Position numbers and translations under genes: made by a program. This document shows, piece after piece, positions 33,387-55,859 of a DNA stretch of 64,000 nt (positions are counted from its first letter, which is position 1; the number at the start of each line of letters is the position of its first letter). This DNA is from Heterodera schachtii (taxonomy: Eukaryota; Nematoda; Chromadorea; Rhabditida; Heteroderidae), in contig SIJG01000112.1 in assembly GCA_023374025.1 (NCBI GenBank), positions 169,278 through 233,277 of the forward strand, written 5' to 3'. Below the pieces are notes generated by a model. It was not told where the DNA came from and searched no databases. It saw only the letters and a program-made list of their open reading frames with translations.

Positions 33387-33690
33387 AGTAGTTAGAGCAT
33401 ACAATTCCACCGGATTACGGTAATGACGTCACCCAAGCCAAAACCTATTGCAAGGGTGCAGGCCATCTGAGCGCCAGGTATTGGCAGCCTGCCAGGGCCA
33501 TCTGAGCGCCAGGCCAACTGAGGCCCAGAACCCATACCTATTGCAGGGGTGCGCAACTTTTTTTCTGCAAACCTAAACCTATTGCAGGGGTGCGCGACTT
33601 TTTTTGTAAAATTTTTTCTGAAAATTAATTATTTTTTTATTATTATTATTTAAAATAATTTTTTTATTTTTTCAAATTTTTTTTATTCGA
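33387..33690 (+). repeat. Left terminal inverted repeat of Polinton copy 1
   Basis: The order AGTAGTTAG, CCACCGGATTACGGTA, several TCTGAGCGCCAG-type phrases, AAACCTATTGCA and GTGCGCGACTTTTTT is mirrored at 49430-49721. The repeat therefore exceeds 290 bp, with an extra AT-rich insertion here at about 33620-33690. Confidence 0.85.
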
Positions 33691-33699
33691 AAAATTCTG

Positions 33700-34195
33700 T
33701 CGCAGGCTTGTGGACTCGAACTTTTGCTCTGCCACCAAACCCAACACACTACCACTCGGCCATGAGACCACTTGCCAGAAAAAGGATAATTGTCAACTAT
33801 ATGCTGCAAAGATGATGACGTCACCACTGCGAGGGGTACGGTAGTCCGGTGAAAAATGGCAATAAATTACCCGCAGGCAACCGGACTCGAACTTTCGCTC
33901 TGCCACCAAACCCAACACACTACCACTCGGCCATGAGACCACTTGCCAGAAAAAGGATAATTGTCAACTATATGCTGCAAAGATAATGACGTCACCACTG
34001 CGAGGGGTACTGTAGTTCGGTGAAAAATCGCAATAAATAAGCCGCAGGCAACCGGACTCGAACTTTTGCTCTGCTACCAAACCCAACACACTACCACTCT
34101 GCCACGCGAGCACTTGCCAGAAAAAGATTAAATGTCCACTATATGCTGCAAAGATGATGACGTCACCACTGCGAGGGGTACTGTAGTACAGCCAA
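33700..34195 (-). repeat. Three tandem tRNA-like units in the terminal repeat
   Basis: Three units of about 170 bp (box-B positions about 33712, 33883 and 34054) each carry, on the minus strand, a box A (TGGCCGAGTGGTAG) and a box B (AGTTCGAGTCC). Each also carries a short copy of the element's terminal motif (GATGACGTCACC with a TCCGGTG-like phrase). They face outward. The anticodon arm cannot fold properly, so they are not tRNAs. The inverted repeat at 49430 has the same tRNA-like piece, also facing outward. They could serve as RNA polymerase III promoters, which is an inference. Confidence 0.65.
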
Positions 34196-35958: not shown

Positions 35959-36148
35959 TACGAATTCTTCTCTCTCGCAGAAACAAATAGAAGCCAACAG
36001 CAGCCGCCCCAGCCGCACCGAACAGATACACAAGGCAGAAAAGAAAGTTTATTGGCGACTTCTCAATAACTTCGGGAAAGCACATCACTATCCCGTCCCT
36101 CGGAGGCACGTCCATCAGAATGTTTTCAGAGGAATAATTCAGACTCAT
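35924..36148 (-). CDS. Small single-span membrane protein
   Basis: Seventy-four residues with one membrane segment (INFLFCLVYLFGAAGAAAVG) followed by a basic stretch (RERRIRNGQQ). Its ATG overlaps the stop codon of the capsid gene in an ATGA, and its tail overlaps the protease start. Copy 2 has a longer membrane protein in exactly the same slot. Role unknown. A virion membrane or assembly function is possible given the position, but no fusion-protein features are seen. Confidence 0.65.
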   Translation of the reverse strand: MSLNYSSENILMDVPPRDGIVMCFPEVIEKSPINFLFCLVYLFGAAGAAAVGFYLFLRERRIRNGQQIHRQTSL

Positions 36149-37530
36149 ACTGTGAGGTCACTAGTGATCGACCGGTTACGATCAATAAGAATGAGCCCGT
36201 CTGCCTCTCCGTACGCGACCAATGTGACTCCCTCGTTGGGTACGGCTTCAGTGAATCGGATGTTCACTGCAGTACAGCCCTCTTTGATCAGCTCAAAGCC
36301 TGGCGAGTCCTCCTGCGCGTTGGTCATTTGGAAGACATAAAGGCAGTAGGCCGTCTTGAACATGCTGTAGCTGATCCCGTTGCTCTCCGTTGTGCACGCC
36401 ATGCCGAGGTGCTCTTGGGCATCGTGATAGGCTCTTGCGTATCTGTTGTTCTTGTAGTCCAGATTGTACGGGTACTGGGGATATGTCCTGCCAGAGGCCG
36501 TAAGCTCAATGTCCCGCACCTGAAGAATCTGATTCATAACCAGCTGCCAAGTGGCACTCACGTTGTGGTGATTAAAATAGAAGGGATTCTTCTGATTATG
36601 GCCAATGTAATTCTGGTTGGACACCAGGCCAATGACGACCCTTCGTGGCACCTCCTCCGTGAATAGGTTGGCCGAGAAGTCATAACGACCACCAGTGACG
36701 AAAAGCGATTTCATGAATGACTTCCGAATTCCGTATCTGGCAGGCTCAGTGTCCAACTTCCTGGCAATGTCAAGACTCAGCCCGTCCATCAAATCGACAG
36801 TCTTCACGATCAGTCTGCAGTCAACAATCTCAAACGTGTACTTGTCCTTATTCGCAGCGTCCTGGTGTATCATAAAATCGTCCGACTGCAGCGCGATCTC
36901 AATGTCAATCTCGACATTGCTGATCATGTACAAGTCCTGGTTGAATATGTCAGCACTCAGCTTGCTTATCGCTTGAAAACTCTTGCTCTCCTCCACCGCC
37001 TTTTTCCGTTTTTCGTTCACCTTTGTCGGGTCACTGTCTCGAAAATAGCCCGCCACGCCAAAGTAGGCGTCTTTTGCCGCCGCCGGGTAGCTGAGCTCAG
37101 TATCCAGGTACACCTTGTAGCTGTACAGCTGGTTGGAGTCGTACACCTCCCGCTGGTTGATGTGCACCTTCAGATTGCGGATGAACGTTGCACCGGGCAT
37201 TTGAATAAGGCCAACAGCCGCATTCGCAGGCATGTCGACGACCACTCCGTCTTCTGCGATCTTTTTGACTTTGAACTCCGTGCACACAAAGACTTTGCTG
37301 AGGTCTATGTAGCTGGTGATCGGATGAATCTGAACAACACTGATGAAAATAGTAAGACTTTGCCAAATATTTGCCTTAAAGTGGAAAGGCCTAGAGCTGA
37401 TCGGGTTCAGCGTCAAGTACTCGCGATAGTTGGAGTTGGACACCGCACAGTTTGTTGGCGGTGTACTGAAGAAGTCCAATCCGCTATTGACCACCTCTGC
37501 ACTCGCAGCATCAACTTTTTTATACAACAT
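36145..37530 (-). CDS. Major capsid protein (double jelly-roll, F54H12.2-like)
   Basis: A frame of 461 residues with the conserved course of the nematode F54H12.2-like family, which I take to be the Polinton hexon-like major capsid protein: FSTPPTN near the start, NPISSRPFHFK, YSYKVYLDTELSY, FNQDLYMISNVEIDIEI, RVVIGLVSNQ and DGLILIDRNRSI at the end. Relative to copy 2, 15 residues are inserted after PFHFK. They correspond to 37330-37374, 45 nt beginning GC and ending CAG, which looks like an in-frame GC-AG intron. Removing it gives 446 residues, close to the 438 of copy 2. Confidence 0.85.
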   Translation of the reverse strand: MLYKKVDAASAEVVNSGLDFFSTPPTNCAVSNSNYREYLTLNPISSRPFHFKANIWQSLTIFISVVQIHPITSYIDLSKVFVCTEFKVKKIAEDGVVVDMPANAAVGLIQMPGATFIRNLKVHINQREVYDSNQLYSYKVYLDTELSYPAAAKDAYFGVAGYFRDSDPTKVNEKRKKAVEESKSFQAISKLSADIFNQDLYMISNVEIDIEIALQSDDFMIHQDAANKDKYTFEIVDCRLIVKTVDLMDGLSLDIARKLDTEPARYGIRKSFMKSLFVTGGRYDFSANLFTEEVPRRVVIGLVSNQNYIGHNQKNPFYFNHHNVSATWQLVMNQILQVRDIELTASGRTYPQYPYNLDYKNNRYARAYHDAQEHLGMACTTESNGISYSMFKTAYCLYVFQMTNAQEDSPGFELIKEGCTAVNIRFTEAVPNEGVTLVAYGEADGLILIDRNRSITSDLTV

Positions 37531-37535
37531 GCCGA

Positions 37536-38046
37536 TTAATAATATCCAAGGGAATCAAATCTTTTCTTTTTCAACAGAGCTCTCTGGGGAACAGTTTGTC
37601 CAACAATATCTGAGGGTTTTAAAATGATCTCGGCTTTCGTCCCTCTCTTCCTCCTTCTTCTCCCTCTGCCCTTCTGTAACGAAGAAGACGCCTTGTCCAG
37701 CAGCGTTTTCATTCCTTCTCTTCCCTCTGCGAGTAGCGCTTCCTTCACATCTCCGCCTCTGGCAGCCTCGCCAAGCACTCGTGCGCCGCGCTCATAGCCC
37801 TTCTTTGCCAACTTCAGCTGCTATGTTTGTTGCGTAGGGCTTCGCCGCAGCGATCATAGGGCGGAGATAGCGCCAAAGATTACGCAGTACCGCTCCCACT
37901 CCCGCTCCCTTCTGTCTTGGGATTCCAAGGAAGTAGCCATAGCCACGCTGGAAGGTTGGGGCTCCCTCAAAGTACGAGATGCTTCCACCCTGCTGAAGAT
38001 ACTTCTCCAACCGCAAGTTCGACCCGTTGAATATAACTCGGACCAT
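37536..38046 (-). pseudogene. Core-protein-like gene, frameshifted
   Basis: An 84-residue frame (37792-38046) and a 91-residue frame (37536-37811) overlap and together match the course of the copy 2 gene: FQRGYG, a short hydrophobic/basic stretch with LRNLWRYL, then a region rich in Lys and Arg (KGRGRRRRKRG) and a VPQRALLKKKRFDSLG ending. Gly-rich starts followed by very basic tails recall adenovirus core peptide X and similar Polinton proteins that condense DNA. No splice sites bridge the frames near 37800-37811, so a one-base indel is likely. Confidence 0.6.
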
Positions 38047-40741: not shown

Positions 40742-41287
40742 ATGCCCCCATTGACAACAGCCTTATCCAAGCTGCTGAACTGTAAAGCTGAGAATTTGGC
40801 AGAGTACTTGAATAACCCGGAAGCTGTGAACAAGGCGAGTGCATACCTGCGAGGAAAGAAGCTCAAGACAACCTACTCGAACAAGGGCGGCACTACAAAG
40901 GAGGTCGAGTTTGGCAACTTCTCGCTAAAGTCCGCTTCGGAGACCTACGCCTTTGAGGGATTCCTTGGCAAGTGTCCTTTCTGCAAACATTCTCTCACTT
41001 TGAAAAGTTCAGAGGTCAAAGTTCACCAATACTTCTACATAAAGCACCGGATCCGCCTGCTGTACCCCCAGCTGAAGTGCATCGTTGAGTACCACAGCAA
41101 AGGGCATTGCAAATACTATCCCTTGGGTAAGAAGCGTTCAGCTGCGATGAATGACCATAATCTCTCGGCTTAAGAGTTATTGGCCATCGAGGACAGTGCA
41201 GAGGGAACAGGCGAGAAGCCAACAGACACCAACTACTTGGACTACTTGGGCTTCCGAAGTGTTTGGCAGCCAACCCCCGTCTATTGA
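40742..41287 (+). CDS. Free-standing PAZ-domain protein
   Basis: Exon 1 40742-41126, intron 41127-41174 (48 nt, GTAAGA to TTAAG, phase 1), exon 2 41175-41287; 165 residues. The core reads as an Argonaute PAZ domain: LRGKKLKTTYS, then SASETYAFEGF, then HQYFYIKHRIRLLYPQLKCI, then KYYPL, with the splice adding ELL as in the PAZ ending YPLELL. No PIWI, MID or Dicer sequence follows. Compared with copy 2, about 17 residues with a CPFC pair are inserted after FEGF, either a real insertion or an unspliced short intron. PAZ domains hold the 3' end of small RNAs, so a decoy or helper in small-RNA silencing is plausible but inferred. It opens the plus-strand block. Confidence 0.8.
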
Positions 41288-41764: not shown

Positions 41765-41800
41765 TAACCCAGTTGATAAGCGATTTTGTTATCATTTGTG

Positions 41801-42501
41801 ATGGATTATCCGAGAATAAATGAACGTGAACTCAAATTTCCCATTCCCTCCGGGATTGTTGTCAGCGGGCCCTCCTCTTCGGGTAAGACTCAGCTGGTCC
41901 TGCGCCTGTTGGCACATGCCAGCGAGATGTTTGATCCCCCGCCAAAGGTTATAGGTAAGTCCACATTGCCATGGTCTAATGAGCCGTCCCATTCGGTTAA
42001 GTTTGGGCGTACGGTGAGTACTCCTCGCAGATTCCTGAGCTCGAGAGGCAGGGTGTAGTCCCGCACGCAGGCCCTCCCTCCGAAGAAATGATGAAAAAGT
42101 TGCCAAAGCCCTTCCTCATTGTCTACGATGACCTCATGGGCGACATTGACGCGAAGAAGTTGGCCGATCTGTACACCAAAAAGTCCCACCACAACAACTT
42201 TTCGGTGATATTCCTTACCCAAAACCTGTTCGACAAGGCGATGAGAGTGCCGAGGTCCAATGCGCAGTACATTTTCCTGATGCGTGCACCCAGCGATATG
42301 TTGAGCATACGTAATTTGGCCAGTCAAATGTTCCCTCGTGAGCACGGGTTTCTGATGGACGCCTACAAGCAGGCGTGTGCCGACCCGTACGGTTATCTGT
42401 TGGTGACTCTTCACGCAAACAGAGACAACCTTTTACGACTGAGGACAAACATTTTCCCAGACGACGAGGAGAAGATAATCTTTGTACCCAAAAATGGTTA
42501 A
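41801..42501 (+). CDS. A32-like (FtsK/HerA) DNA-packaging ATPase
   Basis: Exon 1 41801-41954, intron 41955-42001 (47 nt, GTAAGT to TTAAG, phase 1), exon 2 42002-42501; 217 residues. Walker A is GPSSSGKT near residue 30, WAYGEY follows the splice, Walker B is PFLIVYDDLM, and the sensor-like VIFLTQNLF comes later. Family members pump genomic DNA into the capsid. Length is normal for Polinton ATPases. The next gene starts inside its last codons (8-base overlap). Confidence 0.92.
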
Positions 42502-43613: not shown

Positions 43614-44325
43614 ACAAAATATACAATGATCCGGCCAATCCGGGTGGGTTTGCGGGTGCGAGTGCACTGTACGCAGCGGTCAAGAAGAAGCACCCGAAGC
43701 TGAAGAGGACCGAATTTGATGACTTTTTGCAGCGAAACACCACCTACACGCTGTTTAAGCCAAAGAGGGAGAAGTTTCGACGCCTACGCACTGTACCTAC
43801 GGGGTTCATGACCGGTGAGTTTGTGCACCTTATTTTCACGTGATCGGCTCAGACGTTCAGGCAAACTTGGCAGACTTCCAAGCCCTTTCGCGAAAGAACA
43901 GCGGCTATCGGTACCTGCTGTTGGCGGTGCATGTGCTGTCGAGGCGGATGTTCGGCTCACCCGTAAAGAGCAAGAGGCCGGCGGACGTTAAAAGGGCATT
44001 TGAGGAGGTGTTTGGCCAAATGCCAAAGCTTCCGGAAACACTGTACACGGACCGAGGGTTGGAGTTTGTAGCCAAGCCCATGAAAGAGTTCTTCGCAGAG
44101 AATGGCATAAAGAAGTACGAGACGAACTCAAAGAAGAAGGCAGCCGTCGCAGAGAGAGCCATCCGTACGCTGAAGACCCGGCTGTACAAGTATTTCTCTG
44201 CCAATAACACATCTGCGTGGGTGGATGTCTTGCACAAGTTTTTGTCTGCGATCAATAACTCTGTGTGCCGTGCGACGGGACTTAGGCCTAACGAATTATT
44301 TTTTGCTTTAATGAATAATATTTAA
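43598..44325 (+). CDS. Retrovirus-like DDE integrase, C-terminus missing
   Basis: Exon 1 43598-43814, intron 43815-43852 (38 nt, GTGAGT to CTCAG, phase 1), exon 2 43853-44325. The N-terminus (DEKINKIYNDPANPGGF) is the family's usual start. The catalytic triad is visible: Asp in NLADFQAL, Asp in LYTDRGLEF, Glu in KAAVAERAIRTLK, with 33 residues between the last two. After LRPNE the frame runs into AT-rich DNA and stops, and the SH3-like and chromodomain parts expected downstream are absent. It catalyses insertion of the element. This copy is probably inactive. Confidence 0.88.
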
Positions 44326-49429: not shown

Positions 49430-49721
49430 GAGTGGTAGTGTGTTGGGTTTGTGGCAGACCAAAAGTTCGAGTCCGCTTGACTGCGAAAGAATTTTTCGAA
49501 TAAAAATTTACATAAAAAGTCGCGCACCCCATGCAATAGGTTTAGGCTTGCAGAAAAAAAGTCACGCAATAGGTTTTGGTTTCAGTACTGAAAATTTTGG
49601 CGCTCAGATGGCCCGCGCTCACTTGGCAGCGCTCAGCTGGCTGGCGCTCAGTTGGCCGTGCACCCCTCCCATAGGTATGGGAGGCTACCGTAATCCGGTG
49701 AAATGTACGCCCCTAACTACT
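49430..49721 (-). repeat. Inverted terminal repeat matching Polinton copy 1 left end
   Basis: Read on the minus strand from 49721, the order AGTAGTTAG, CACCGGATTACGGTA, GAGCGCCA phrases, AAACCTATTG, GCGCGACTTTTT, TTCGAAAAATTCT and then the tRNA-like piece is the same as at 33387 onward. The inner side runs into the assembly gap. Its outer end lies inside integrase coding sequence of copy 2. Confidence 0.85.
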
Positions 49722-49993
49722 ATCTTCCCAATTATTCGGATGAAATTTTCCAAGTTTATGATATTAAAAAGGCAAATCCTAATCGGTATGGGATAAAGGA
49801 CGACAATGAAGAGCCGTTTGACACACGTTTTTATGCTGAAGACTTGGCGAAAACCAGAAAAGACGCGGAGACAACATACAGAATTGAGAGAGTGCTGAAG
49901 ACACGGACAAGGAGTGGGCAGAAAGAACATTTGGTGAAATTTTATGGGTATAAAGAACCGGAGTGGATTAAAGACAGTGATATTGAGATATAA
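49703..49993 (+). CDS. Integrase C-terminal remnant with chromodomain
   Basis: Ninety-six residues. From about residue 7 the sequence follows the Polinton integrase tail: YLPNYSDEIFQV (SH3-like region), FYAEDL, then a chromodomain (YRIERVLKTRTRSGQKEHLV, then KFYGYKEPEWI). Chromodomains read histone marks and can steer integration. The catalytic domain is missing. The ATG and first six codons come from the inverted terminal repeat that abuts it, so this start may be accidental. The penton gene follows 43 bases later. Confidence 0.75.
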   Translation: MYAPNYYLPNYSDEIFQVYDIKKANPNRYGIKDDNEEPFDTRFYAEDLAKTRKDAETTYRIERVLKTRTRSGQKEHLVKFYGYKEPEWIKDSDIEI

Positions 49994-50036: not shown

Positions 50037-52184
50037 ATGTCTAATTTGTTTTATATTCTTCTCCCAAGTGATACCCCTGGCTATCAGAATAAGCCAAATA
50101 AATTTAGAGTTCATCTTCCTCGTAGTTTAACTTTTTCCGGGCATTGGCTGTGTGGGCTTCATAGCATAATATATACAAATTCATGGCCCGCTGTTGGAAC
50201 TAATGAAAATCAATGGGTAAAGGTGCATTTTCGAAACGGGAACACAATTAAAATTGACATTCCCGCTGGTTCTTACCAAAATGAAGAAGAATTGGAAAAT
50301 GCTATAAACGATGTGATAATTACTCGAACAACAAAATCATTTGAGGCGGCTCGATTTAAGAGGCAACAAAATTTGGCGGAAGATGGTGTCGATTTGTTTT
50401 TCCATTATAACCCTGATGATTACTGGGAAAGAATTGAGGAAGAAAGACAAAAATATAATGAAACGATGAAATCTATAGAGATAAAATCATCCGAACGTGC
50501 TAATGAAAAGGACAATGATAGAAAAAGAAAAATAGAGGAAGAAATCGACCCTCTTCAAAAACAATCTTTGATTAAGAAGGCTCGGCTGGATGCGCTAGTG
50601 GCAGAAGCCAGACAAAGGGACGAAGGAAAAGAGGAGAAAGAGGATAGAACAGGGCAAGAATTTCTCAAAATGTATTCTGATGATTATAAGGAGAAATTGA
50701 ATGAAGTTCGACTAGAATTAATAAGAGATTTATTCAAAATCCAAGACCATATGAAAAAATATCAGGACATTACTGACGGTAGAAAAATTCAAGAATTAAA
50801 TGAAGAAGCATTACGAATGAGAACAGCAATGAAACATAGAAGGAAAAATTTAAATGCTTTTAGCAAGGCTGTCTTTAATAAAGACTTACAAATATCAGCC
50901 GAAGAATTCGAAAGAACAAATTATGAACAGAACAAAGACTATGTTGAATCGTTTTTTGATAGTTATCCAACTGATTACTGGGAGCAAATTCATAAAAAAT
51001 ATCAAGGGCTTCAAGAAGATTATAGAAAAGTTCGTGAATTAAGAGAGCAACAACAATTTATAACTGAAGAACAAAAGATAAAATCAATACAGAGTGATAT
51101 TGACCAACTCCGACGTCTTATCGATTATAGAAGAAAGAGATTCGCAGCACTAGAGTATGAAGCTAAAAGCAGGGATGCTAAACAACAGCCGGTAGCGCTA
51201 GCTTTAACCAATGCTGATGTATTGAAGGAGCGAATAAGTCAAGTTATAGAAACCAGACAGTCTGAGTATGATGATCAAACGACAAAAACCCATGGTCAAT
51301 CATTAGTTAGCTTAATAGAGCAAGTGCAGAGAGAAAGAGATCAGAGCAATGCTGTAAGTGAACAGGAAACCCAAGGGGACAAATTAGCCATTAAATCGAA
51401 GGATGACGTCTTAGGAGAAGGAAAGACGCGTGGAGATGTATTAAAAAATAAGATAGAAGAAATTGGTCATAATGAAGATGGTGATGACGAAAAGACAAGA
51501 GGAGAAACTTTAGCTGATAAAATACGTAACCGTTCTGAAAATGAAGAAAAAATTGAAGGAAAGACGCATGGAGAAATTCTAAAAGAAAAGCTTTCATTGG
51601 GTAGTGATGATGTACAATTAGTTAAGACAAAAGGTGAAATATTTAAAGAAAAAATTGAGACTACCAAAACAACCGATAAAACTGAAAATAAAACCCATGG
51701 CGATTTATTACAAAATATAATTACATCAAGGCATGTTGAGCGAATAAGATTTAAATATTTAAAAGAGCGACGAAAATTTTCTGTTTATTTTAACGAACAA
51801 AGTATTGCTTATATTGAACTGTCAGCTCAGCTTGGATATATACTAGGATTCGATGATCCATCTAAAATACATAACGAGGACATGGCAAAATATTATTGTG
51901 ATTTAAAGGGAGGAATCGACAGCTTTTGCGTTTATATTAACGGAATTACTGAAAATGTTATAGTTGGCGATCAATTAGCGTCACTCCTCCGAATTGTAGT
52001 CGTTGAAGGAAAATTTGGTGATGTGATTGAGAAGATATATAACTCACCAATGTATATTAAAGTTGCGGTGAAAGAAATTAATGAAATTGACATTGAGATT
52101 AGAACGAGAGAGGGAAGACTGATACCGTTTCAGTGGGGTACAACATTACTTGTATTGGCATTTAAAAAGTCTATAGTATTTTAG
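50037..52184 (+). CDS. Penton-like minor capsid protein with long coiled coil
   Basis: A 715-residue intronless frame. Residues 1-100 (NLFYILLPSDTPGY, IIYTNSWPAVGT) and about 565-715 (AQLGYILGFDDPS, DLKGGIDSFCVYING, RLIPFQWGTTLLVLAF) are the two halves of the conserved Polinton penton-like family. Between them, residues about 110-400 are Glu/Lys-rich and helical. Residues about 410-560 hold roughly six repeats of a KT(H/R/K)G motif followed by a short helix. The insert makes it longer than the usual family member and matches the coiled-coil position in copy 1, though the repeat sequence differs. Confidence 0.75.
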   Translation: MSNLFYILLPSDTPGYQNKPNKFRVHLPRSLTFSGHWLCGLHSIIYTNSWPAVGTNENQWVKVHFRNGNTIKIDIPAGSYQNEEELENAINDVIITRTTKSFEAARFKRQQNLAEDGVDLFFHYNPDDYWERIEEERQKYNETMKSIEIKSSERANEKDNDRKRKIEEEIDPLQKQSLIKKARLDALVAEARQRDEGKEEKEDRTGQEFLKMYSDDYKEKLNEVRLELIRDLFKIQDHMKKYQDITDGRKIQELNEEALRMRTAMKHRRKNLNAFSKAVFNKDLQISAEEFERTNYEQNKDYVESFFDSYPTDYWEQIHKKYQGLQEDYRKVRELREQQQFITEEQKIKSIQSDIDQLRRLIDYRRKRFAALEYEAKSRDAKQQPVALALTNADVLKERISQVIETRQSEYDDQTTKTHGQSLVSLIEQVQRERDQSNAVSEQETQGDKLAIKSKDDVLGEGKTRGDVLKNKIEEIGHNEDGDDEKTRGETLADKIRNRSENEEKIEGKTHGEILKEKLSLGSDDVQLVKTKGEIFKEKIETTKTTDKTENKTHGDLLQNIITSRHVERIRFKYLKERRKFSVYFNEQSIAYIELSAQLGYILGFDDPSKIHNEDMAKYYCDLKGGIDSFCVYINGITENVIVGDQLASLLRIVVVEGKFGDVIEKIYNSPMYIKVAVKEINEIDIEIRTREGRLIPFQWGTTLLVLAFKKSIVF

Positions 52185-52596: not shown

Positions 52597-53913
52597 ATGG
52601 TTTTTAAGAAAATCGACCAAGAGTCCATGAATTCAATAACATCAGCCTTGTCTATTTTTACCCTTCCACCTACAAATGTTTCTATAAGTAGTTCTTGTGT
52701 ACGTGAATATTTGCCGCTTAATCCGTTAAGCGATATCCCTTTCCACTTTAAAATTCATCCAAGTTCAAATTTTATTGATTTAAATAAATGCTATATCTTA
52801 ACCGAAATGTCCATTAAAAAGTTCGACTCTGCTACCAATAAATATGTTACCCTCAAAAATAACGAACAAGTGGCTACAATCAATATGATAGGTTCGACTT
52901 GGATAAAGAACCTAAAAATTAGCGTTCAAGGGCGCGAGATTTATGACTCTAACTCTCTGTATGCTTATAAAGCATACTTTGACGCGGAATTATCATACTC
53001 TAAAGATGTTAAACACTCACATCTCCAAGCTAGTGGTTATTACGCAGACAGTGACAACCAGGACGGAACTGATAGCACCCACCAAGGATTTGATTGTAGA
53101 CGAAAATTATTTTCTGAAAGCCAGAGTGTGCAATTTCTTGCAAAATTGGATGCTGATGTGTTCAACCAGGACAGATATATGGTTAATGGAATTGAGATTG
53201 ACATACAAATTACACCGAATGACAATGATTTTATGATAATGGCAGCGGCAGACGATAAATATAAGATTGAGATCAGTTCATGTAAGCTATATGTTAAGTC
53301 GTTGGAAATCGTTGATGGTCTCGCTTTGGATCTACAGAAGAAGCTTGAAAGCAAAGAAGCAAAATATGCCCACAGAAAAACATTGATTAAATCGGTGTTC
53401 ATCAGTGAGAATCGGACTGAATTTAATGGCACATTGTTTACAGGGCAACTGCCTAAAAGAGTGATTCTCGGAATGGTTGAAAATTCTGCATATGTAGGCT
53501 CACAAAAGAAGAGCCCGTTTAATTTTAAGCCCTTTAATGTTCGATCAGTTTCGATGATCGCTAATGGAAAACAATGGCCCGCAGCACCTTTTGAACTTAA
53601 TTTTGATAAAAATTTATATACGCGCGCATTCCATGAAATGAATGAATCTTTGGGAATGAATTCCACCACTGACAGTAACGGAATCACACTAGAAAAATAT
53701 CGAAGTGGTTGGACAATTTTTGTATTCAATATGACGAATAGCATGGAAGAAAATGAGTGTATTGATCTTATCACCGAAGGTACGACCACCGTTTCGGTTC
53801 AGTTTCGAAAACCCGTTCAGTCAGGAGGGATTACTCTAATTGCAATGAGTGAGATGGATTCTATCTTAATTTTGGACAAAAACCGTACCGTTATGACAGA
53901 CACTACCGTTTGA
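52597..53913 (+). CDS. Major capsid protein (double jelly-roll, F54H12.2-like)
   Basis: A 438-residue intact frame with TLPPTNVSIS, NPLSDIPFHFKIHP, AYKAYFDAELSYS, FNQDRYMVNGIEIDIQI, PKRVILGMVENSAYVG, SPFNFKPFNV and DSILILDKNRTV, the ordered motifs of the family. It aligns with copy 1 throughout, with no equivalent of the 45-nt insertion there. It forms the capsid shell. The gene follows the core-like gene by two bases and precedes the membrane protein. Confidence 0.88.
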   Translation: MVFKKIDQESMNSITSALSIFTLPPTNVSISSSCVREYLPLNPLSDIPFHFKIHPSSNFIDLNKCYILTEMSIKKFDSATNKYVTLKNNEQVATINMIGSTWIKNLKISVQGREIYDSNSLYAYKAYFDAELSYSKDVKHSHLQASGYYADSDNQDGTDSTHQGFDCRRKLFSESQSVQFLAKLDADVFNQDRYMVNGIEIDIQITPNDNDFMIMAAADDKYKIEISSCKLYVKSLEIVDGLALDLQKKLESKEAKYAHRKTLIKSVFISENRTEFNGTLFTGQLPKRVILGMVENSAYVGSQKKSPFNFKPFNVRSVSMIANGKQWPAAPFELNFDKNLYTRAFHEMNESLGMNSTTDSNGITLEKYRSGWTIFVFNMTNSMEENECIDLITEGTTTVSVQFRKPVQSGGITLIAMSEMDSILILDKNRTVMTDTTV

Positions 53914-53956: not shown

Positions 53957-54463
53957 ATGTTTTTATTTATTTTGTATTTACTACTTTTAATAAATATTTC
54001 CTTGTGTTTTAACGGACCAATACTTGTGCCGGAACGATCAAGGGATAGAGAAATGACAGACATTTATTATAAAATTGCTTCCTTCAATAAGTCATATTTA
54101 ATTCAGAAAAATCAAAGCGAATTATTAAGTTTAATTGACGGATTAGTAAGCCATTTTGAGACTTGTAAAGCCGTTGAAAATAAAACTTTGGCCGAATGGC
54201 TATACTGTATTTTAGTGTCCCTGTTTTGGTTAGTGGCACTAATAACTGGAATTTTTTTATCTTTAAATTCCTTAATACAAAGAATATATAAACTATTCTT
54301 TTTACATAGAGAAAAAAATGGAGACTACGACAATAAATCAGATTTTATCACAGAACGTCAAGACGAGAAGGGAATATTTGGGATGTTTTCCTTGCGACAA
54401 AATCCCATACAAAAACAACAAATTTCCGTCAGCTCTGGTAGCGAACAACGATCCGTCAAATAG
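53957..54463 (+). CDS. Type I membrane protein between capsid and protease
   Basis: 168 residues: N-terminal signal peptide (FLFILYLLLLINISLCF), an ectodomain of about 75 residues with possible N-glycosylation sites (NKS, NQS, NKT), a membrane span (CILVSLFWLVALITGIFLSL) and a basic/polar tail of about 60 residues. The last 146 bases overlap the protease start in another frame. Copy 1 has a much shorter protein with one span in the same slot. No fusion peptide or heptad pattern of a fusogen is evident. Function unknown. Confidence 0.7.
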   Translation: MFLFILYLLLLINISLCFNGPILVPERSRDREMTDIYYKIASFNKSYLIQKNQSELLSLIDGLVSHFETCKAVENKTLAEWLYCILVSLFWLVALITGIFLSLNSLIQRIYKLFFLHREKNGDYDNKSDFITERQDEKGIFGMFSLRQNPIQKQQISVSSGSEQRSVK

Positions 54464-54776
54464 GGAGGGCTCACATTGGATCGCGATTTTTATTGAAGAT
54501 GACGAAACAGTATATTATTTTGATAGCTTAGGCCGAAACCCGAATAAATGTATTAATATGTTTTTGAGAAAATTTAAACAAATAATTTTAAATAAACCTA
54601 CTTTTCAAACGATTTTTAGCGAAAATTGCGGGTATTATTGTATTTATTTTATTTATCGCATGTGTTGTGGAGGAGAAAATTATAAAAAAACTTTTGAAAA
54701 TTTGTCTCTTAAATTGGTAAATATGGATGATTCTGATTTGTTTGTAGTTATGTTTGTTAAACGAATGTTGAAATAA
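54318..54776 (+). CDS. Adenain-like cysteine protease (capsid maturation)
   Basis: 152 residues. His in GSHWIAIF, Asp in YYFDSLG and Gln-x6-Cys in FQTIFSENCGYYC fit the C5/Ulp1-like catalytic set. The N-terminal INQILSQNVKTRREY aligns with copy 1, supporting this start despite a 146-base overlap with the membrane-protein gene. No intron, whereas copy 1 has one. Confidence 0.88.
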   Translation: METTTINQILSQNVKTRREYLGCFPCDKIPYKNNKFPSALVANNDPSNREGSHWIAIFIEDDETVYYFDSLGRNPNKCINMFLRKFKQIILNKPTFQTIFSENCGYYCIYFIYRMCCGGENYKKTFENLSLKLVNMDDSDLFVVMFVKRMLK

Positions 54777-54820: not shown

Positions 54821-55303
54821 ATGGATCGCTTAGATACAATAATAGCTTCTCTTCTTAGCTGCACTGCAAGAAATTTATGCGACCGTCTAAATCATCCAGA
54901 TGAGATTCAAAAAGTAGAAAAATTCCTCGATGGAAAACAATTTCAAACTACCTACAAAAATCATTTGGGGGAGCAGAAGGAATTTATTTTTGGCGGAATC
55001 ACGAAGGAAAGCGCCCGAAGGAAGATGGCATACAACGGGTTCAAAAATGTTACTGTTGATCAGCACTTTTATGTACGACATCGCATTTGCCTGCGCTACG
55101 CAAACAACCCTTGTGTTATCGAGAAGAGCAAGAACGGACTCGAACGTTATTACCCTATGGAACTTGTTAAAGTGAAAGAAGCCGATAAAAGCGATATTTT
55201 TTTAGGGAAAAACTTTCCCAGCAATAATAAGAAAATCAGTTCGAATGAAAAATTTATCGAAGTAAACGAAGAAAACTGCTATGAATATTATCCTTATTGG
55301 TGA
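54821..55303 (+). CDS. Free-standing PAZ-domain protein
   Basis: 160 residues, intronless. Residues 1-35 are helical. About 35-120 form a PAZ domain: LDGKQFQTTYKNH, KEFIFGGITKESARRK, VTVDQHFYVRHRICLRYANN, PCVIEKSK and RYYPMELVKV, an order I know from Argonautes. The C-terminal 45 residues (polar, ending EYYPYW) are element-specific. There is no MID/PIWI. It aligns with the copy 1 protein. It follows the protease by 44 bases and meets the TBP-like gene tail-to-tail with three bases between. Confidence 0.85.
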   Translation: MDRLDTIIASLLSCTARNLCDRLNHPDEIQKVEKFLDGKQFQTTYKNHLGEQKEFIFGGITKESARRKMAYNGFKNVTVDQHFYVRHRICLRYANNPCVIEKSKNGLERYYPMELVKVKEADKSDIFLGKNFPSNNKKISSNEKFIEVNEENCYEYYPYW

Positions 55304-55306
55304 AAA

Positions 55307-55859
55307 TTAATGCTTATAATTACACAAAATTGAATAAAAATTGTTGAATGCAAAATCGATATCATATTTTGATTTGGCGCCGGTCAAGTTAATCTTTCCG
55401 CTTGAGAATACGATAATTGACACTTTAGGATCAGCATTTCTGAAGACGAGACCAGGAAAAAGTTCGGGTGCAAAAGAGCATTGTTTTGCTCCAAGATAGT
55501 CAGAGAGTGGTCCAAGCTTTATATGGAAGCGCACATCCGTTGTTGCTACCAGATTCTGTACGGCAAACTCTCTGATTTGGGCATTGTAGTAGCCACATTG
55601 TTGTATTCGTTCAGTCACTTCCTTCGCAGCTGATTTGCATTCGCTCTCGCTACTTGCACCCGTGCAAACAAATTTTCCCCGTTGAAAATATGACTGCTGT
55701 TGCGTTCGGACTATACACCTTCATGATTACGGCATTCATTCGCTGAGGAGTGTATTTGGTCGAAGGAGCCACAATATAAATTTTTTGCAGGTCCAGTCGG
55801 GTTTTAAGGTCAATAACGGCAACACAATTTTTTATTATTGGAGATGTAGGGACGGACAT
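55307..55859 (-). CDS. TATA-binding-protein-like core (frameshifted once)
   Basis: About 184 codons make up just the two-repeat TBP saddle. Repeat 1: IIKNCVAVIDLKTRLDL, YTPQRMNAVIMKV, TAVIFSTGK. Repeat 2: FAVQNLVATTDVRFHIKL, PELFPGLVFRN, IIVFSSGKINLTGAK, FNNFYSILC. The N-terminal tail of cellular TBP is missing. A single extra T near 55665, between GK and TGA, shifts the frame and yields the two frames 55650-55859 and 55307-55618. In repeat 1 the usual DNA-kinking Phe of RFAAVIM is Met. TBP nucleates promoter complexes; a TBP within a Polinton would let it recruit or divert polymerase (inference). Intronless and three bases from the PAZ gene, it looks like part of the element. Confidence 0.8.

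What the first reader, a model, noticed from the sequence alone, without database searches (positions are those of the whole stretch)
54821..55303. Virus-like transposon encodes a free-standing PAZ domain
The protein between the Polinton protease and the TBP-like gene reads as an Argonaute-type PAZ domain without MID or PIWI. Visible in order: TTY after the first strand, GGITKESA, the FYVRHRICLRY helix-strand and the YYPMELV ending. PAZ pockets bind small-RNA 3' ends. Nematodes depend on small RNAs to silence such elements, so a lone PAZ could be a silencing decoy, a guide-RNA sequestering protein or a recruiter of host Argonautes. I know of no described Polinton with this gene.
Basis: partly seen in the sequence, partly recalled or inferred. 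Interest (0 to 1): 0.95.

Follow-up and report, generated by a model that had tools for sequence, protein, structure and literature searches.

The report
Argonaute PAZ domain in virus-like transposons
Virus-like mobile elements in a plant-parasitic nematode carry a stand-alone copy of the Argonaute domain that grips the ends of small RNAs, probably to blunt the worm's own RNA-based silencing of transposons.

Summary

It is no one-off. The Heterodera-type genome holds 110 matches; 53 of 101 distinct places lie within 15 kb of a Polinton integrase, about 1.6% being expected. A second PAZ sits in the neighbouring Polinton. Relatives also lie behind a phlebovirus-like envelope in BEL/Pao retroelements (7 of 7 loci fetched, two lineages). 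Copies are under purifying selection.

Best explanation: a captured host Argonaute domain used as counter-defence, holding the 3' ends of the RdRP-made siRNAs that silence transposons in piRNA-less cyst nematodes. Domain, association and constraint are shown; the anti-silencing role is inferred. No held paper found describes it, but two key nematode Polinton papers were not held.

The parts
54821..55303 (+). Free-standing PAZ protein of Polinton class A, 160 aa: PAZ body about residues 1-122, then a low-confidence, slightly acidic tail ending in Trp
55076..55081 (+). Codons R86-H87 of the PAZ, aligned with AGO2 R315-H316 of the RNA 3'-end pocket (H in 30 of 30, R or K in 30 of 30 family members)
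55298..55300 (+). C-terminal Trp codon; the last residue is Trp in 13 of 30 A1 rows (classes A and C, and P0005)
54318..54776 (+). Polinton cysteine protease (Peptidase_C5 / C48), overlapping the 168-aa ORF
53957..54463 (+). 168-aa ORF with hydrophobic segments (by eye), conserved beside the protease in class A copies
52597..53913 (+). 438-aa conserved element ORF, capsid-type by gene order only (no family over its cut-off)
50037..52184 (+). 715-aa conserved element ORF, function not identified
49694..49993 (+). Weak chromodomain-like ORF, in the place expected for the end of a Polinton integrase
   Evidence: 14.6 bits, below cut-off 25.1
55307..55618 (-). TATA-binding-protein-like gene beyond the PAZ in Polinton A
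40742..41173 (+). Second PAZ-family ORF (143 aa) in the neighbouring Polinton B; PAZ 17.7 bits alone, below the cut-off of 28.8; 37% identical to the first
43819..44325 (+). Polinton B integrase core (rve, 39.4 bits)
41786..42501 (+). Polinton B packaging-ATPase-like ORF pieces (Pox_A32 18.1 bits, below cut-off 22.8)
36148..37554 (-). 469-aa ORF of Polinton B, homologue of the 438-aa ORF of Polinton A (about 40% identity)

Best explanation
The ORF is a complete PAZ domain captured from a host Argonaute and kept as a separate gene by several Polinton lineages, and as a domain behind the envelope by BEL/Pao retroelements, of a cyst nematode. Most likely the protein is a counter-defence. Its pocket holds the 3' ends of small RNAs, so abundant free PAZ would sequester the RdRP-made siRNAs (or their precursors) that the worm uses against transposons in place of piRNAs, and so weaken Argonaute loading. 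Shown here: PAZ identity and predicted fold, conserved pocket pair, no PIWI nearby, repeated association with virus-like elements of two replication classes, purifying selection. Inferred: origin from a host Argonaute, RNA 3'-end binding, siRNA sequestration, benefit to the element.
Against: No RNA-binding or expression data. The position of AGO2 Y311 is H in 24, Y in 4 and L in 2 of 30 members, so the pocket is not identical to AGO2's, and the pairing of residues 45 and 71 with H271 and F294 is by eye (the HMMER alignment shifts this stretch by about one residue). 45 of 98 integrase places used have no PAZ match within 15 kb, and 48 of 101 PAZ places, 13 of them retroelements, have no listed integrase within 15 kb. 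An isolated PAZ may bind 3' ends only weakly (recalled). Constraint is looser in classes C, E and G (finite dN/dS 0.12-0.43, many pairs saturated). Some loci are broken (L014, L015, L041, L055-L057).
Confidence: 0.5

Rival explanations
1. The PAZ serves the element's own nucleic-acid metabolism: it binds free 3' ends of element DNA or RNA (for example displaced strands of protein-primed replication or packaged nucleic acid), as a general 3'-end-binding protein.
For: pPolB pieces lie near the PAZ in class C, E and F loci; body net charge +6; DNA has been reported to bind the AGO2 PAZ domain (PMC6361761, passage seen).
Against: The same family sits behind the envelope of BEL/Pao retroelements, which replicate by reverse transcription; no pPolB match in the fetched class A stretches or in the 4.5 kb class D locus L058; 45 of 98 integrase places have no PAZ match within 15 kb.
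Confidence: 0.2
2. The protein acts by protein contacts, not RNA: PAZ plus the tail with its terminal Trp docks on host Argonaute, RdRP or a GW-type partner and competes with or recruits them.
For: Terminal Trp kept in 13 of 30 rows with otherwise different tails, in classes A and C and in P0005; tail residues 127-145 under pLDDT 50 in the model.
Against: The class B, D, E, F and retroelement rows do not end in Trp (the three retroelement rows are pieces cut by me), while R/K86 and H87 are kept in all 30; one Trp at the very end is not a described Argonaute hook (recalled).
Confidence: 0.15
3. The PAZ lets the element bind and use host small RNAs positively, for example to silence host genes or rival elements.
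For: Fold and pocket as above.
Against: No PIWI match within 50 kb of any of 101 places, so no known way to cut a target.
Confidence: 0.05
4. Passenger gene fragment without function, copied along with the elements.
For: Some copies are broken.
Against: Class D: dN/dS 0.05-0.22 in 10 of 10 pairs; class A: 0.05-0.11 in 8 pairs, 2 saturated; R/K86 and H87 kept in 30 of 30 members that fall to about 25% identity.
Confidence: 0.04

Closest known systems
PAZ domain of animal Argonautes AGO1-4 (PF02170; PDB 8thq, 6ra4, 1si2)
   Same: Whole fold from the N-terminal helices to the last strand; R315/H316 pocket pair; best sequence and structure hits
   Different: Free-standing, no PIWI nearby; about 19% identity; position of Y311 mostly His; own tail
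Polinton/Maverick self-synthesising transposons
   Same: rve integrase, adenovirus-type protease, pPolB and ATPase-like genes round the PAZ in one or another class
   Different: A PAZ gene is not among the Polinton genes known to me (recalled), nor named in the listings; PMC11071308 has 0 occurrences of PAZ or Argonaute
BEL/Pao-type retroelements with phlebovirus-like envelope, such as Atlas virus of hookworm (PMC9094657; start of abstract and term counts seen; its place in Belpaoviridae recalled)
   Same: Pao peptidase, integrase and phlebovirus-like G1/G2 envelope
   Different: A PAZ domain follows the envelope here; the Atlas paper's main text has 0 occurrences of PAZ or Argonaute
Viral suppressors of RNAi that bind small RNAs (p19, B2 class; recalled)
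   Same: Proposed way of working: withhold small RNAs from Argonaute
   Different: Those are unrelated folds; here the binding domain is an Argonaute module

Membership tests
PAZ domain (PF02170) | Profile score over the curated cut-off | tested here: met
   34.5 bits against 28.8; 30 of 30 members match at E up to 1; the window's second copy alone is below the cut-off, 17.7 bits
PAZ domain (PF02170) | OB-like barrel with beta-alpha appendage | tested here: met
PAZ domain (PF02170) | Pocket residues for the RNA 3' end | tested here: met
   R86/H87 aligned ungapped to R315/H316; H 30 of 30, R or K 30 of 30; Y311 position H 24, Y 4, L 2 of 30. Pairing of 45 and 71 with H271 and F294 is by eye and unsure
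PAZ domain (PF02170) | Binds small-RNA 3' ends | not testable with these tools
   needs a binding assay
Argonaute protein | MID and PIWI domains in the same gene | tested here: not met
   0 of 101 family places within 50 kb of 31 PIWI matches; MID not searched on its own
Polinton/Maverick | rve integrase with the PAZ in one element | tested here: met
   53 of 101 places within 15 kb of an integrase; for the window's own class A copy the expected stretch is withheld and could not be read
Polinton/Maverick | Protein-primed DNA polymerase B | tested here: met
   PF03175 78.5 bits (class F, L060) and 55.1 bits (class E, L059), homologues in 6 of 7 class C loci; none found in the fetched class A stretches or in L058 of class D
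Polinton/Maverick | Adenovirus-type protease and packaging ATPase | tested here: met
   Peptidase_C5 24.2 bits over cut-off 21.3 in element A; ATPase only weakly, below cut-off, in Polinton B
Polinton/Maverick | Long terminal inverted repeats round the window copy | tested here: inconclusive
   four AT-rich pairs of 45-54 nt, 70-77% complementary, at 44-64 kb; part of the left side withheld
Viral/element suppressor of RNA silencing | Reduces silencing when expressed | not testable with these tools
   no assay; context only

The most novel reading that the evidence does not exclude
A captured Argonaute PAZ domain is a tradeable anti-silencing module, passed between unrelated virus-like elements (dsDNA Polintons and envelope-bearing BEL/Pao retroelements) in cyst nematodes. 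It would form a class of RNAi suppressor that turns the host's own guide-binding domain into a small-RNA sink, in an arms race with the worm's Argonautes.
Probability: 0.42. Interest if true: 0.95.

Novelty: new variant of a known kind. Interest (0 to 1): 0.86.

Why it matters
Nematodes are the classic setting for small-RNA silencing of transposons, yet element-borne counter-measures are hardly known there (recalled). A lone PAZ carried by two unrelated element classes would be a suppressor made from the defence machinery itself, and it makes a clear, testable prediction (3'-end binding dependent on R86/H87). It would also give an unusually simple natural PAZ protein for biochemistry, and would bear on how RNAi works in cyst nematodes.

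Tried and rejected
Chance resemblance: rejected. Pseudogene of a host Argonaute: rejected, no PIWI nearby and element genes on both sides. Dicer or PIWI-clade PAZ as origin: the profile search listed only Argonautes at E up to 1, but PIWI PAZ structures appear lower in the fold lists, so this is not excluded. Tree of element and host PAZ halves: 37 rows, 69 columns, 7 of 34 inner branches well supported; it could not decide one capture against several. Host exons L045-L049 score a little better with the family profile (35.6-41.7 bits) than the ALG-like L044 (32.6), but over a longer stretch, so this is only a hint. In one search the L021 row of set G was out of frame; its three pairs are dropped. 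The search of the protein database with a BEL-type piece scored none of 348 candidates at E up to 0.01. The viral-contig scan with the window PAZ confirmed no relative; PHROGs no family for 4 window proteins. tRNA genes at 33-50 kb: none. In one search, 98 of the 149 integrase rows were used (51 second fragments and weak rows left out; only 150 of 310 candidates had been scored), and 101 of 110 PAZ rows (9 second fragments left out). Class labels were assigned by eye, for unfetched loci from the match pattern alone and after both lists had been seen, so the offsets by class are partly circular; the count 53 of 101 does not depend on the labels.

Full report

Pocket. In the profile alignment the AGO2 stretch TVAQYFKDRH meets the family's TVxQHFYVRH without gaps, so R315/H316 correspond to R86/H87; an AGO2 chain with exactly these two changed scores 33.3 bits against 45.9. 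In the 30 members: H87 30 of 30; R 27 or K 3 at 86; Y 27 or F 3 at 71; Y 21 or H 9 at 45; at 82 (AGO2 Y311) H 24, Y 4, L 2. That these AGO2 positions hold the RNA 3' end is recalled, not a result here; the pairing of 45 and 71 with AGO2 residues is by eye.

Surroundings in the window. Left to right: a weak chromodomain-like ORF (49694-49993), a 715-aa ORF, a 438-aa ORF, a 168-aa ORF, the protease, the PAZ, and on the other strand a TBP gene. Five other loci with an intact class A PAZ in this arrangement were read (L009-L013) and two with a broken one (L014, L015). By the usual class A offset the integrase of the window copy would fall in a withheld stretch. A second Polinton (B, about 35.5-44.3 kb) carries its own PAZ relative at 40742-41173, 37% identical, below the Pfam cut-off when taken alone.

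Host. The named protein hits are Heterodera trifolii and H. schachtii gene models; two are labelled 'PAZ domain-containing protein' by UniRef. Of the 17 proteins, P0001, P0004 and P0005 have no organism given and the other 14 are Heterodera. So the window is from a Heterodera-type cyst nematode (inference), family Heteroderidae.

How widespread. The window PAZ has 110 matches at E up to 1e-3 in its own genome. With a Polinton integrase as second query (149 rows, 98 used; 150 of 310 candidates scored), 53 of 101 distinct PAZ places lie within 15 kb of an integrase; about 1.6% is expected. By class (labels by eye, see Tried and rejected): A 6 of 8, five of them at -5.7 to -5.9 kb on the same strand (the sixth, the window copy, has as nearest the integrase of Polinton B); B 12 of 25 at +3.0 to +3.3 kb, same strand; C 8 of 17 at +8.4 to +12.3 kb, opposite strand; D 14 of 17, thirteen at -5.0 to -5.2 kb, same strand; E 8 of 9, seven at -7.1 to -7.9 kb, same strand; F 3 of 4 at +10.3 to +11.3 kb, opposite strand; retroelement class G 0 of 13; unclassed 2 of 8. 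pPolB pieces lie near the PAZ in 6 of 7 class C loci read, and in the one long locus of E (L059) and of F (L060). Against universality: 45 of 98 integrase places have no PAZ match within 15 kb.

Retroelements. Giant frames among the matches are BEL/Pao elements. Pfam, run on pieces of two of them, gives Integrase_H2C2, rve (below cut-off in both), DUF5641, Phlebovirus_G1/G2 glycoprotein (G2 182 and 179 bits; G1 below cut-off in L025) and then PAZ (29.4 bits in L022, over cut-off; 26.0 in L025, below), with Peptidase_A17 at the left edge of L025. In the 7 such loci fetched (L021-L027; 9 of 13 class G places) an envelope G2 piece lies upstream of the PAZ, and integrase is seen in 5. L021-L024 are 99-100% alike in the G2 and PAZ pieces, so these are two lineages, not seven events. 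A database relative of this type (P0014) is predicted to fold as PAZ, Foldseek E 1.4e-5 to AGO2 PAZ, though its model is weaker (mean pLDDT 60.1, PAZ blocks 67-90).

Not an Argonaute. PIWI (PF02171) gives 31 matches; 0 of the 101 family places lie within 50 kb of one, while 7 of 13 other PAZ places lie within 2.6 kb. Those 7 are taken as host Argonautes (inference).

Selection. Nei-Gojobori dN/dS: class D, 10 pairs of 5 loci, 0.05-0.22 with unsaturated dS; class A, 8 pairs 0.05-0.11 and 2 saturated, near the 438-aa ORF (0.04-0.05 in 7 pairs, 3 saturated) and below the protease (0.11-0.25 in 8 pairs, 2 saturated). Looser: class C 0.12-0.39 (6 of 21 pairs finite), E 0.15-0.35 (5 of 10 finite), G 0.18-0.43 (3 pairs kept). 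Between L009 and L011 the 438-aa ORF has dS 0.37 but the PAZ 1.87, which suggests that the PAZ end has been exchanged between elements (inference).

Terminal Trp. In 13 of 30 rows the last residue is Trp although the tails differ (classes A and C, and P0005); 17 of 30 do not end in Trp, three of them retroelement pieces cut by me. A docking motif is possible; nothing tests it.

Mechanism. Clade IV nematodes lack PRG-1/PIWI, and in the cyst nematode Globodera pallida 20-26 nt 5'-triphosphate RNAs lie mostly antisense to transposons (PMC4323106, passages seen). G. [quoted passage not shown] What Polintons and BEL/Pao elements share is not a replication mode but this host defence. A free PAZ with its pocket kept is therefore best read as a small-RNA 3'-end sink. 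This last step is inference; RNA binding and effect on silencing are untested.

Literature. Searches for PAZ with Polinton, Maverick, Bel-Pao, Heterodera and RNAi-suppressor terms, and for nematode Polintons and envelope-bearing BEL/Pao (listings seen) named no PAZ-bearing Polinton or BEL/Pao element in title or shown abstract start. Passages or term counts were seen in PMC6361761, PMC4901422, PMC9094657 and PMC11071308. The papers with DOI 10.1093/molbev/msad274 and 10.1126/science.ade0705 were not held, so absence from print is not shown.

Verdict. Domain, context and constraint are firm; the anti-silencing role is the best-supported explanation at about one in two.

Noticed in passing
window 40742-41173: A second PAZ-family ORF in the neighbouring Polinton B, with a longer loop before the pocket helix and a different C-terminal end.
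   Followed up: yes
L041, L055, L056, L057 (own genome): Relatives of Polinton B in which the PAZ is split over two or three frames; at four contigs such matches stand as inverted pairs 5.4-7.2 kb apart (L041 and L055 are 99.6% identical over 801 bp, inverted).
   Followed up: partly
L022, L025 (own genome): BEL/Pao retroelements with a phlebovirus-like envelope in a plant-parasitic nematode, with long open frames.
   Followed up: partly
window 55307-55618 and class A copies: A TATA-binding-protein-like gene on the opposite strand beside the PAZ of Polinton A, 83.8 bits to PF00352; a Polinton with its own TBP seems unusual (recalled).
   Followed up: no
L061:90-314 (-): A further PAZ-type frame (37.6 bits) with Asn at the pocket His position; element or host origin not determined.
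   Followed up: no
P0017, P0006, P0009 (Heterodera trifolii gene models): Predicted proteins that join a PAZ piece to a SET domain or to the protease start; may be gene-model errors or real fusions.
   Followed up: no
window 33550-34083 and 49445-49568: Inverted repeat copies 15-16 kb apart bearing a tRNA-like T-arm motif (recalled); ARAGORN finds no tRNA at 33-50 kb.
   Followed up: partly
L009 and L011 (own genome): 438-aa ORF and PAZ give discordant dS (0.37 and 1.87), a sign of exchange between elements.
   Followed up: partly
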